This document shows, piece after piece, positions 16,901 through 18,929 of a stretch of DNA of 64,000 nt (positions are counted from its first letter, which is position 1; each line of letters begins with the position of its first letter). The DNA lies in assembly GCA_012064415.1 (NCBI GenBank), contig SSNU01000144.1, positions 981,084 to 1,045,083 on the forward strand, in the 5' to 3' direction. The position numbers and the translations under genes are program-made. This DNA comes from Gyrodactylus bullatarudis (taxonomy: Eukaryota > Platyhelminthes > Monogenea > Gyrodactylidea > Gyrodactylidae). Below the pieces are notes generated by a model, which made no database searches, had not been told where the DNA came from, and saw only the letters and a list, made by a program, of their open reading frames with translations.

Positions 16901-18929
16901 AATAGAGAGAGTAGATTTAAGAAATTTAAAAGCAGAAAGGCAAAATGAATAAAATGTCCACATCATTTATATAAAATTATTCTATTTGGAAGTTTAGGAG
17001 TAAAAATAGCTTTAAAATTTTATTGTTGCATAAAGTTTTGTATTCTTTGGAGGGATGGAATAATGCTATTTCTTAGTAATTCAGATCAGGGGTAATACTT
17101 CTGTTCAGCACTTACGAATATCCATGGATTCTTAAGAGCATCTGCTGCAGTTATTCTTTTCCCTGGATTCACTTCCAACATTCTATTGATTAGTTTTTTG
17201 GCTTCTGGTGTCACTGTATCCCATTCGGGAGACGGATACTGAGAAAATTGGGAAAAATAGGATTAATTTTATTAAATTGCCAAAACTTTTAATCTCACAT
17301 CAAATGCTCCACTTTTAATCTGAGTGTACAATCGATTTTGATCTTCATCCCAAAATGGAGGATATCCAACAAGAAGAATGTACAAAATTACACCTGTTTG
17401 ATAACAAATAAATAATATTTTATAATATGGGGTTAAACTGGAAAAAAATTTTACTTACCACAGGCCCAGACATCTACTGGCTTTCCATATGGTTCTCGTC
17501 TCAATACCTCGGGGGAAAGGTACCCTGGAGTTCCAGCAAATCCTGAATTGGAAAATGTTTAAGATGAAATAATTAAGAAAAAGGAATCATTTACTAACCA
17601 TGCCAGCCAGGGATATCTCCTTGAACATCAATAGCTAGACCGAAATCTGCAAGTTTCACTGCTGCTCCTTTTGTTTTACTGGCAAGTAGCAGATTTTCTG
17701 GCTATAATTTTAATAGATCAGTATAGCATTTAGCCAGAGAATAAATTTATTCAACTTAATAACCTAAACGAAACTTGATTATATACCAGTTGTAGCTTTT
17801 TAGTTAATATTCTATACTTTCCTAGTAGTAGTTGAAATTCAACATTGTTGAACTAACGATGATACTAAAAGTTGTGTTTAGGTTATCAAGTTGAATAAGT
17901 TTTGTCGCAGTGCATATTCCATTAGCAGGGGAAAAAGATATTGACAATATTCATTCAGAACAACATTGGTAATAATTATTTGTATTGTGAAATGACATGG
18001 AAATGAATTATTAAAACACATTATATAATAGAGACGATGTAAATGATCCAAAAATGGGATGCAGTAAAAATTATTAAGTAGTATTCAGTGTCAATAAAAA
18101 GCATGCACACAAAGACAATTAGAAGGAGAAAATAAAACCATTTTGAGGCAAGGAGAGGTCTTCAAACCAACCTTCAGGTCTCTATGAACAATATTGTTTT
18201 GATGACAATAGTTCACACTTTCCAATATTTGTTGCATACAGTTACTATGAGAGTAAATTGTACAATTATTATATAAAATTTAAATGATAAAATTGATTGA
18301 ATAAACTTGAAAAAAACTATTAGATTGACAAATTAATTTCGAAATTTTTAATAAAATAAACTTGATTACCTTAAGATCTCGATGTATGATGTTAGCTCTA
18401 TGTGTAAACTCAACGGCTAGCAATATCTGATAAATTGTGTAACTAATTTATTCATTAAATTGAAATATTTTACTAATGAAAATGGATAATTTACCTGGCA
18501 TCAGATTCACTGTAAAATTCTCTTGCGACGATATCCTCAAAAAGTTCACCTCCAGTGACCCTTGTTTAAGAATTAGAAATGAGAAATTACAAATCAAAAA
18601 CTAAATAATGAAATCCTTCATCTTGAATAGTTTCATGAAGCCTGACAATGTTTTGATGCTTGAGAAGGCGGCATATTCTTGCTTCTCTTTCCAGTTTTTG
18701 CATATCTAAAATAAAATATTTTTTCTACCTCTAGCTGATAATCTTTTGGTGTTAATAATCTTTGCAGCGAATTCAAGACTAGTTGATAACTGAACGCATC
18801 TTTTGACAATAGAAAAAGCTCCTCTGTAATAAAAATAGTTAAATAAATCAATAGATCCGATTTCAAGAAAACACACCTTCCAAGCTCTTCTTTTAGATCG
18901 TATAGGTCTATGAACCTAGGTGCAGCCAT
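7959..18929 (-). CDS. CaMKII: Calcium/calmodulin-dependent protein kinase II (16 coding exons, 564 aa)
   Basis: Multifunctional Ser/Thr kinase that decodes Ca2+ signals. Exons in transcript order: 18877-18929, 18729-18823, 18591-18705, 18495-18560, one of 18370-18442 or 18172-18244, 17599-17701, 17459-17542, 17299-17393, 17116-17238, 16695-16778, 16591-16633, 10895-11158, 9123-9198, 8719-8813, 8229-8346, 7959-8166. Their lengths sum to 1695 nt with every phase compatible. Motifs: start [19 protein letters not shown] (P-loop), [32 protein letters not shown] (DFG), [30 protein letters not shown], then the autoinhibitory segment [19 protein letters not shown] with the Thr of the autophosphorylation site. 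The variable linker is Asn/Ser-rich. The hub domain runs from [13 protein letters not shown] through TEETRIWNN and HVHRS. The start agrees with the family N-terminus. Two introns are only 23 and 30 nt long. Confidence 0.95.
12681..13890. mobile_element. hAT-like non-autonomous element, copy 2, with fold-back core
   Basis: The element at 12689-13882 has 11-bp terminal inverted repeats TAGGGCCTCAA / TTGAGGCCCTA. It is flanked by near-identical 8-mers tttatcac (12681-12688) and ttcatcac (13883-13890), matching the 8-bp target duplications of hAT transposons. An internal palindrome has arms of about 207-233 bp at 13094-13300 and 13462-13694. The two arms therefore encode the same artefactual peptide on opposite strands. 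No transposase is present. It lies in a CaMKII intron and is related to the element at 961-1790. Confidence 0.75.
15544..15558 (-). other. CaMKII: Candidate 15-nt microexon in the CaMKII linker
   Basis: On the minus strand the 15 bases TCGCCGGCTCAAAAT lie between an acceptor ending aaaattctag and a donor GTAAGT. The length is divisible by 3, and insertion after the phase-1 exon 16591-16633 keeps the frame open. The CaMKII linker is commonly alternatively spliced in animals, but the evidence here is only the splice signals. Confidence 0.35.
17747..17898. repeat. 152-bp stem-loop / MITE in a CaMKII intron
   Basis: Arms 17747-17776 and 17869-17898 are reverse complements at 27 of 30 positions; the left arm starts ttattcaacttaataaccta. 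No coding capacity is seen. The structure resembles a small MITE and sits between alternative exon A and the exon encoding PENLLLAS. Confidence 0.6.
18172..18244 (-). other. CaMKII: CaMKII alternative catalytic-loop exon A (downstream, canonical copy)
   Basis: A 73-nt exon with acceptor ...ctcatag and donor GTTGGT. It encodes [20 protein letters not shown] followed by HRDLK, close to the usual CaMKII sequence for this segment. It joins in phase to the exon at 17599-17701, which begins PENLLLAS. Confidence 0.85.
18370..18442 (-). other. CaMKII: CaMKII alternative catalytic-loop exon B (upstream copy)
   Basis: A 73-nt exon with acceptor ...aaattag and donor GTAATC. Joined to the phase-2 donor at 18495 it reads [20 protein letters not shown] followed by HRDLK. 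It is the same length, phase and end motif as the exon at 18172-18244 and encodes the same segment (alpha-E helix and catalytic loop). It is less like the usual CaMKII sequence than the other copy. Including both copies would give AAG then TAA at the junction, so the two must be mutually exclusive. Confidence 0.75.

What the first reader, a model, noticed from the sequence alone, without database searches (positions are those of the whole stretch)
18172..18442. Phase-locked mutually exclusive exons for the CaMKII catalytic loop
Exons 18370-18442 and 18172-18244 are both exactly 73 nt and both accept phase 2 and leave phase 0. Both encode alpha-E plus the HRDLK catalytic loop, but with different sequences ([19 protein letters not shown] versus [19 protein letters not shown]). 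Using both creates AAG-TAA; skipping both shifts frame to a stop. So only one can be used. CaMKII diversity in animals is known from the linker; I know of no kinase-core alternative of this kind. The two isoforms could differ in substrate handling or activity.
Basis: partly seen in the sequence, partly recalled or inferred. Interest (0 to 1): 0.9.

Follow-up and report, generated by a model that had tools for sequence, protein, structure and literature searches.

The report
Swappable catalytic-core exons in flatworm CaMKII
A flatworm's CaMKII gene carries two interchangeable versions of the exon that encodes the heart of the kinase, only one of which can be used at a time, and similar pairs turn up in snails, octopus, worms and fish, so it looks like an old, little-noticed way for animals to make two kinds of this enzyme.

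Summary
Exon A (18442-18370) and exon B (18244-18172), minus strand, are each 73 nt, enter in phase 2, leave in phase 0, have GT-AG sites, and encode alphaE plus HRDLK. A alone or B alone keeps the CaMKII frame open; both, or neither, gives an early stop. In a six-frame scan of the window, A is by far the closest match to B after B itself (62, next 27). The gene is a flatworm CaMKII (mitochondrial code 9); no second copy was found. The pair is not unique: octopus and abalone database isoforms are identical except in exactly this exon, and gene models in 12 species (two nematodes, an annelid, a snail, a larvacean, seven fish) hold both copies in tandem. Best reading: a real mutually exclusive pair, enforced by frame, probably an old bilaterian one; common origin is likely, not proved. 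No transcript data from this species were available. New member of a known kind, with a deep history that my searches did not find described.

The parts
18370..18442 (-). exon A, upstream alternative: 73 nt, phase 2 in / 0 out, alphaE + HRDLK
18172..18244 (-). exon B, downstream alternative with the canonical CaMKII sequence: 73 nt, phase 2 in / 0 out
   Evidence: 96% identical over this exon to Dicrocoelium P0002 and Macrostomum P0009, 64% to the A-like Opisthorchis P0005
18495..18560 (-). exon E4 (constitutive, [21 protein letters not shown]), splices to A or B
17599..17701 (-). exon E6 (constitutive, PENLLLASK...), receives A or B
18591..18929 (-). exons E1-E3 (18929-18877, 18823-18729, 18705-18591): start codon and N-lobe
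16591..17542 (-). exons E7-E11: rest of kinase domain and autoinhibitory/calmodulin-binding segment
8067..9205 (-). association (hub) domain exons, found by tblastn with fluke and Macrostomum CaMKII; exact ends and intervening exons not worked out
18245..18369 (-). intron between A and B, 125 nt, well above the smallest introns of the same gene (23 and 30 nt)
17743..17902 (-). hairpin in the intron after B: 34-nt arms, 88% complementary, -42.9 kcal/mol, z -6.55; one copy found in the genome; role unknown, possible splicing element

Best explanation
The two exons are a working mutually exclusive pair in the only CaMKII gene found in this flatworm. Each productive transcript takes A or B, giving two kinds of subunit that share everything in the kinase domain except helix alphaE and the run-in to the HRD catalytic loop. 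Exclusivity in the product is enforced by frame: double inclusion or double skipping brings a stop inside the kinase domain (shown), so such RNAs would be lost to decay or yield truncated protein (inferred). Spacing is unlikely to be what excludes double inclusion, because this gene has introns of 23 and 30 nt and the A-B intron is 125 nt (shown). B gives the canonical animal kinase core; A gives a diverged core that keeps HRDLK and probably differs in stability, substrate turnover or partner binding rather than being dead (inferred). The same exon is alternated in molluscs and duplicated in nematode, annelid, larvacean and fish gene models, so the pair is most likely inherited from an early bilaterian, with A evolving fast in flatworms (inferred).
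For: Anatomy and frame. Protein-level constraint between A and B. Octopus P0051/P0057 and Haliotis P0019/P0026: isoforms of equal length with 7 and 8 differences, all inside this exon; Biomphalaria P0047/P0095: 10 in the exon, no substitution elsewhere, 19 gap columns; Physella P0048/P0117: 9 in the exon, one substitution elsewhere, 32 gap columns. Of the 351 CaMKII proteins in the capped lists from 12 species carry both copies in tandem. A-like versions in three flukes: P0001, P0005, P0139. One CaMKII only: (130 matches listed; 127 of 226 candidates scored) matches of 76-96% lie at this locus alone, the others are 58% or less; two of those were read and look CaMKI-like (C319) and CASK-like (C443:321 kb), names by recall. 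Both isoforms match Pkinase over profile positions 1-263. Common origin: in a tree of 34 exon peptides, 9 upstream or A-type exons from flatworm, molluscs, annelid, nematodes and larvacean fall on one side of a branch (93/90, not starred by the tool's 95/80 rule); the labelling by genomic order ranks 1st of 64 in the seven-pair set.
Against: No transcript from this species was seen; use of A is inferred. Exon A has the fewest pyrimidines of the gene's 11 acceptors (7 of 17) and a long branch (0.47), and by identity its nearest row in the tree set is the single exon of Rotaria, 60%. The tandem gene models are, I think, faulty predictions: they show that both copies lie in the DNA, not that both are expressed; if the four Dunckerocampus isoforms with both copies (P0126-P0129) were real, exclusivity would not hold there. 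No fluke was seen with both versions, and whether a fluke's A-like exon is upstream or downstream is unknown. Against common origin: the three fluke A-like and two fish upstream exons do not group with the other A exons in the free tree, though one clade of all 14 is not rejected (p-AU 0.22). With Dictyocaulus added, genomic-order labelling ranks 2nd of 128, beaten by swapping fish delta, and 7 of 28 pairwise contrasts are negative, the lowest -24 for annelid against Dictyocaulus. Two of the three fluke A-like exons have V before HRD, like B. With 25 columns none of this is decisive.
Confidence: 0.82

Rival explanations
1. Exon A is a relic: an old duplicate that is still readable but hardly spliced in, with B doing the work.
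For: Fewest pyrimidines of the 11 acceptors; long branch; loss of both alphaE cysteines that B keeps.
Against: Open frame, same length and phase as B, HRDLK kept through silent changes; isoform A scores 242 bits as a kinase against 252 for B; A-like versions in three fluke proteins.
Confidence: 0.13
2. The pairs in different phyla are independent, convergent duplications of a favoured exon, not one ancient pair.
For: PMC9741552 stresses convergence of tandem exon duplications between vertebrates, arthropods and nematodes, and the passage naming families with events in all three groups does not name CaMKII. Fish upstream exons and fluke A-like exons group with B types in the free tree. Of 28 pairwise contrasts 7 are negative and one is zero, e.g. 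annelid-Dictyocaulus -24, flatworm-fish delta -13, snail-fish delta -11, annelid-Steinernema 0.
Against: Same exon and same borders in the tandem models, as far as their faulty joins show; in the 6 non-vertebrate pairs of known order the residue before HRD is I or L upstream and V downstream, 6 of 6 (sequences); genomic-order labelling ranks 1st of 8, 16, 32 and 64 in four of the five sets tried.
Confidence: 0.35
3. Exclusive choice is run by RNA structure: the hairpin arm in the intron after B can pair with the donor site of A and block it.
For: The hairpin is far stronger than shuffles (0 of 200 fold as well, z -6.55; 0 of 300), and one copy was found in the genome; one arm matches the complement of the A donor at 88% of 16 positions.
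Against: The pairing with the A donor is reached by 26 of 500 shuffles, the lowest of 12 donors tried, so it is within chance; the arm is held in a stronger local hairpin; the whole intron does not fold unusually well (13 of 200 shuffles as low); one of 135 other 470-nt stretches of the window has as good an inverted repeat; no relatives to test covariation.
Confidence: 0.08
4. A duplicated or misassembled second CaMKII gene explains the extra exon.
For: None found.
Against: Both exons lie 125 nt apart in one contig of 1.06 Mb between single sets of flanking exons; no other CaMKII-level match listed in the genome.
Confidence: 0.02

Closest known systems
Human CAMK2D tandem-duplicated exon event (PMC9741552, section 10 with Fig. 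2A legend)
   Same: [quoted passage not shown] mutually exclusive splicing of homologous exons.
   Different: Vertebrate paralog. The parts I read give no exon letters, so that it is the same exon is inferred from fish delta models with both copies. The flatworm A exon is much more diverged.
Mollusc CaMKII isoforms in databases (Octopus, Haliotis, Biomphalaria, Physella)
   Same: This exon swapped; in Octopus and Haliotis all else equal.
   Different: Predicted isoforms; the mollusc A type reads EG(V/I)..(I/V)I before HRD and keeps the cysteines that flatworm A has lost.
Human CAMK2D as a gene with four clusters of mutually exclusive exons (PMC5740500, one passage)
   Same: Names CAMK2D among human genes with several such clusters.
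   Different: The passage does not say which exons.
FYN and PRKCB tandem exon events (PMC9741552, passages)
   Same: Mutually exclusive homologous exons in protein kinase genes.
   Different: Other kinases; for FYN the swap covers the SH2-kinase linker and the N-terminal part of the kinase domain; the passage does not place the PRKCB event.

Membership tests
CaMKII | kinase domain closest to CaMKII | tested here: met
   best 120 of 8000 scored are listed, up to 86% identity; those with a specific name are CaMKII, others are unnamed or called protein kinase
CaMKII | autoinhibitory/calmodulin-binding segment and C-terminal association domain in the same gene | tested here: met
   exons at 16778-16591 and hub exons at 9205-8067, same strand and order; exons between them not mapped
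Mutually exclusive tandem-duplicated exons | adjacent homologous exons of like length, phase and reading frame | tested here: met
Mutually exclusive tandem-duplicated exons | both or neither breaks the frame | tested here: met
Mutually exclusive tandem-duplicated exons | transcripts with each exon and none with both | not testable with these tools
   no RNA data for this species; in octopus and abalone both single-exon isoforms are annotated
Orthologue of the mollusc/nematode/annelid/larvacean CaMKII exon pair | upstream exons closer to each other than to downstream exons | tested here: inconclusive
   93/90 branch and rank 1 of 64 for; rank 2 of 128 with Dictyocaulus, 7 of 28 negative contrasts, and fluke and fish placement against
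RNA-structure-controlled exclusive splicing (docker/selector type, named from recall) | competing pairings that select one exon | tested here: inconclusive
   hairpin significant, pairing with A donor not (26 of 500 shuffles, 12 donors)
Exclusion by short spacing | intron between the exons too short to be spliced | tested here: not met
   125 nt, while the gene's own introns go down to 23 and 30 nt

The most novel reading that the evidence does not exclude
CaMKII has had two interchangeable catalytic-core exons since before protostomes and deuterostomes parted. Molluscs and flatworms still choose between them by splicing, insects seem to have kept only one, and vertebrates shared the alternatives out among paralogs: solved alpha and beta kinases carry the downstream type, delta and gamma the upstream type, and fish delta- and beta/gamma-type genes still hold both. 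Part of what distinguishes CaMKII paralogs would then be a frozen ancient splice choice.
Probability: 0.5. Interest if true: 0.78.

Novelty: new member of a known kind. Interest (0 to 1): 0.58.

Why it matters
CaMKII diversity is usually told as a story of the variable linker; a CaMKII-delta splicing review, for instance, calls only the linker exons 13-19 variable in the passages I saw and nowhere in its main text uses 'mutually exclusive' or 'exon 6' (PMC7991079). A conserved choice inside the catalytic core across several animal phyla would mean that the enzyme's chemistry or partners, not only its spacing, are set by splicing. It gives a direct test: swap one 24-residue segment in a well-studied laboratory kinase and measure. 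It could also explain why solved alpha/beta and gamma/delta kinases differ in this segment.

Tried and rejected
Species name: no close relative was among the listed protein hits (best 86%, a fluke). Mitochondrial cox1 reads by code 9, and its 3 AAA codons align with Asn of solved cox1, so a flatworm. Genome size 77.3 Mb, a 14.9-kb mitochondrial contig and 30% GC recall Gyrodactylus, but that is recollection and untested; only looked up the genus.

Second CaMKII gene: C319 reads as CaMKI-like and C443:321 kb as CASK-like (names by recall); rejected as copies of CaMKII. The other matches outside this locus were not read.

Spacing as the cause of exclusivity: rejected (23- and 30-nt introns). RBFOX-type TGCATG (name by recall) 64 nt after exon B: one site, and 26 in the window against 21.2 expected; no weight given. 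RNA pairing to the A donor: within chance. Transposon origin of the hairpin: only one copy found, by a search that skips very common words, so not supported, not excluded.

In one search I also compared P0019/P0025 (8 differences in the exon, 3 substitutions and 5 gap columns elsewhere), P0164/P0063 (7 in the exon, 2 and 94 elsewhere) and P0105/P0107 (a comparison of two sources, none in the exon, 37 and 34 elsewhere); they are not used as pairs.

Literature: ten searches, open-access papers only, lists capped (for example 30 of 82, 15 of 72, 12 of 261). By title and start of abstract, no listed paper treats this exon pair in invertebrates; most were not opened. PMC7991079, PMC12925949, PMC2764345 and PMC5740500 were seen by passages only; PMC9741552 by section 10 and passages; its supplements could not be read. 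Structure prediction was not tried: by its description the tool does not take a spliced isoform.

Full report
What was claimed and what is there. The window's minus strand holds a CaMKII gene. Twelve exons, counting A and B, from 18929 to 16591 rebuild the kinase domain and the regulatory segment, and hub-domain exons follow at 9205-8067. With A or with B the frame is open; with both, the stop comes right after HRDLK (codon 135); with neither, at codon 125.

It is more than chance. A and B share 13 of 25 residues, and none of 100,000 shuffles of B scores as well. In all six frames of the window the best match to B outside itself is A (62); then come unrelated stretches (27 and below). Of 25 codons, 6 are unchanged, 7 changed silently and 12 changed the residue; the catalytic motif is kept through three silent changes. 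So A is an old, constrained duplicate. Isoform A still scores 242 bits as a Pkinase domain, B 252.

Which animal. The cox1 gene on a 14,926-base contig reads by mitochondrial code 9, and all 3 of its AAA codons align with Asn of the best solved cox1 chain, which it matches along its length. That table is titled echinoderm and flatworm mitochondria, and the best CaMKII hits are flukes, so it is a flatworm. A Gyrodactylus-like worm is my guess from recall, not a result.

One gene. An exon-wise search of the whole genome listed 130 matches (127 of 226 candidates scored). Matches of 76-96% lie at this locus only; the rest are 58% or less. The 58% one looks CaMKI-like and another on the same contig as the window CASK-like (names by recall). 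So A is not a stray exon from a second CaMKII that this search could see.

The same exon is alternated elsewhere. One search, made with isoform A, made with region-limited queries (Opisthorchis P0005 and the tandem Owenia model P0123), each scored 8000 candidates and listed 120; together they gave 351 proteins with the CaMKII motif before this exon. Octopus P0051 and P0057 are 478 residues each and differ at 7 positions, all in this exon. Haliotis P0019 and P0026, 486 each, differ at 8, all in this exon. Biomphalaria and Physella pairs differ at 10 and 9 positions in the exon, with no and one substitution elsewhere, plus 19 and 32 gap columns. These are predicted isoforms; species, isoform names and contig lengths say that each pair comes from one record. 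Fifteen of the 351, from 12 species, contain both copies one after the other: Steinernema, Dictyocaulus, Owenia, Nucella, Oikopleura and seven fish; a further fish model, P0131, has two HRDLK motifs 110 residues apart and was outside the count's limits. I read such proteins as what a gene finder makes when two such exons lie side by side; if the four Dunckerocampus isoforms of this kind were real, exclusivity would fail there. Three flukes show A-like versions (P0001, P0005, P0139) and other flukes the B type; none was seen with both. The lists are capped and rich in insects, whose entries show one type; absence in insects was not tested further.

Order and ancestry. In the six non-vertebrate pairs with known order, the residue before HRD is I or L upstream and V downstream, 6 of 6 (sequences); of the three fluke A-like exons two have V and one has I. 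A label-swap test on BLOSUM similarity put the genomic order 1st of 16 labelings (five pairs), 1st of 8 (four protostome pairs), 1st of 32 (six pairs without the window), 1st of 64 (seven pairs) and 2nd of 128 (all eight, with Dictyocaulus), where swapping the fish delta pair scores better; of 28 pairwise contrasts 20 are positive, one zero and 7 negative. A tree of 34 exon peptides puts nine A-type exons (window, Octopus, Haliotis, Steinernema, Dictyocaulus, Owenia, Nucella, Oikopleura, Biomphalaria) on one side of a branch (93/90, not starred). The three fluke A-like and two fish upstream exons fall outside it. Holding all 14 together is not rejected (p-AU 0.22), nor the 12 without fish (0.15), nor the four flatworm A types (0.47). 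The tool warns of few columns and of the long rows Oikopleura, window A and Paragonimus; by plain identity window A is nearest to the single exon of Rotaria, 60%. Twenty-five columns cannot settle this. I put common origin of at least the protostome pairs above one half.

Vertebrates. Solved chains named alpha and beta carry ...EAVLHCHQMGVV..., delta ...ESVNHCHLNGIV..., gamma ...ESVNHIHQHDIV.... The ten fish models with both copies are of delta type outside the exon (P0124, P0130, P0239, P0240, P0241) or of beta/gamma type (P0125-P0129), and in all ten the downstream copy is the alpha/beta type. The simplest reading is that the pair preceded the split of these paralogs and that alpha and beta kept the downstream type. 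This is inference. [quoted passage not shown]

How it works. Shown: frame lock. Shown: spacing is not limiting, since the gene has 23- and 30-nt introns and the A-B intron has 125 nt. Inferred: wrong combinations are removed by decay. The acceptor of A has the fewest pyrimidines of the 11, so A may need help to be chosen. A strong hairpin, found once in the genome, sits in the intron after B (z -6.55); for the intron as a whole 13 of 200 shuffles fold as well. One arm resembles the complement of A's donor, but that pairing is within chance (26 of 500 shuffles, best of 12 donors). What differs in the protein: both alphaE cysteines, an acidic residue (E to L) and a glutamine (Q to Y) are lost in A, while HRDLK stays. 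I expect a tuned kinase rather than a dead one; this is untested.

Novelty. Ten paper searches, open-access only and with capped lists, showed by title and abstract no account of this pair in invertebrates or as a bilaterian-wide feature (numbers in Tried and rejected). Since a human case is in print and mollusc isoforms are annotated, the window's pair is a new member of a known kind. What may be new is the depth and breadth of the pair and its link to vertebrate paralog differences.

Noticed in passing
18728-18706 and 18590-18561, minus strand: Two introns of only 23 and 30 nt in the same gene, fixed by protein continuity; very short for an animal, though small 5' introns are recalled for parasitic flatworms.
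   Followed up: partly
17743-17902, minus strand: 160-nt hairpin with 34-nt arms in the intron after exon B, -42.9 kcal/mol, z -6.55; one copy found in the genome.
   Followed up: partly
20702-21670, plus strand: Open frame of 322 codons with a rhodopsin-type receptor match (PF00001, 47 bits), on the other strand from CaMKII.
   Followed up: no
40892-42184, plus strand: Open frame of 430 codons matching copper amine oxidase (PF01179, 159 bits).
   Followed up: no
L006 (G000:C13:8472-12809): Mitochondrial contig of 14,926 bases; cox1 reads by code 9 with 12 in-frame TGA.
   Followed up: partly
P0095, P0117 (snails), P0040 (unnamed), P0122 upstream copy (Dictyocaulus): Versions of this exon with HRDMK instead of HRDLK in the catalytic loop.
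   Followed up: no
P0036, P0121-P0130, P0133, P0239-P0241; P0131: Public CaMKII gene models that string together both alternative exons; probable annotation errors.
   Followed up: partly
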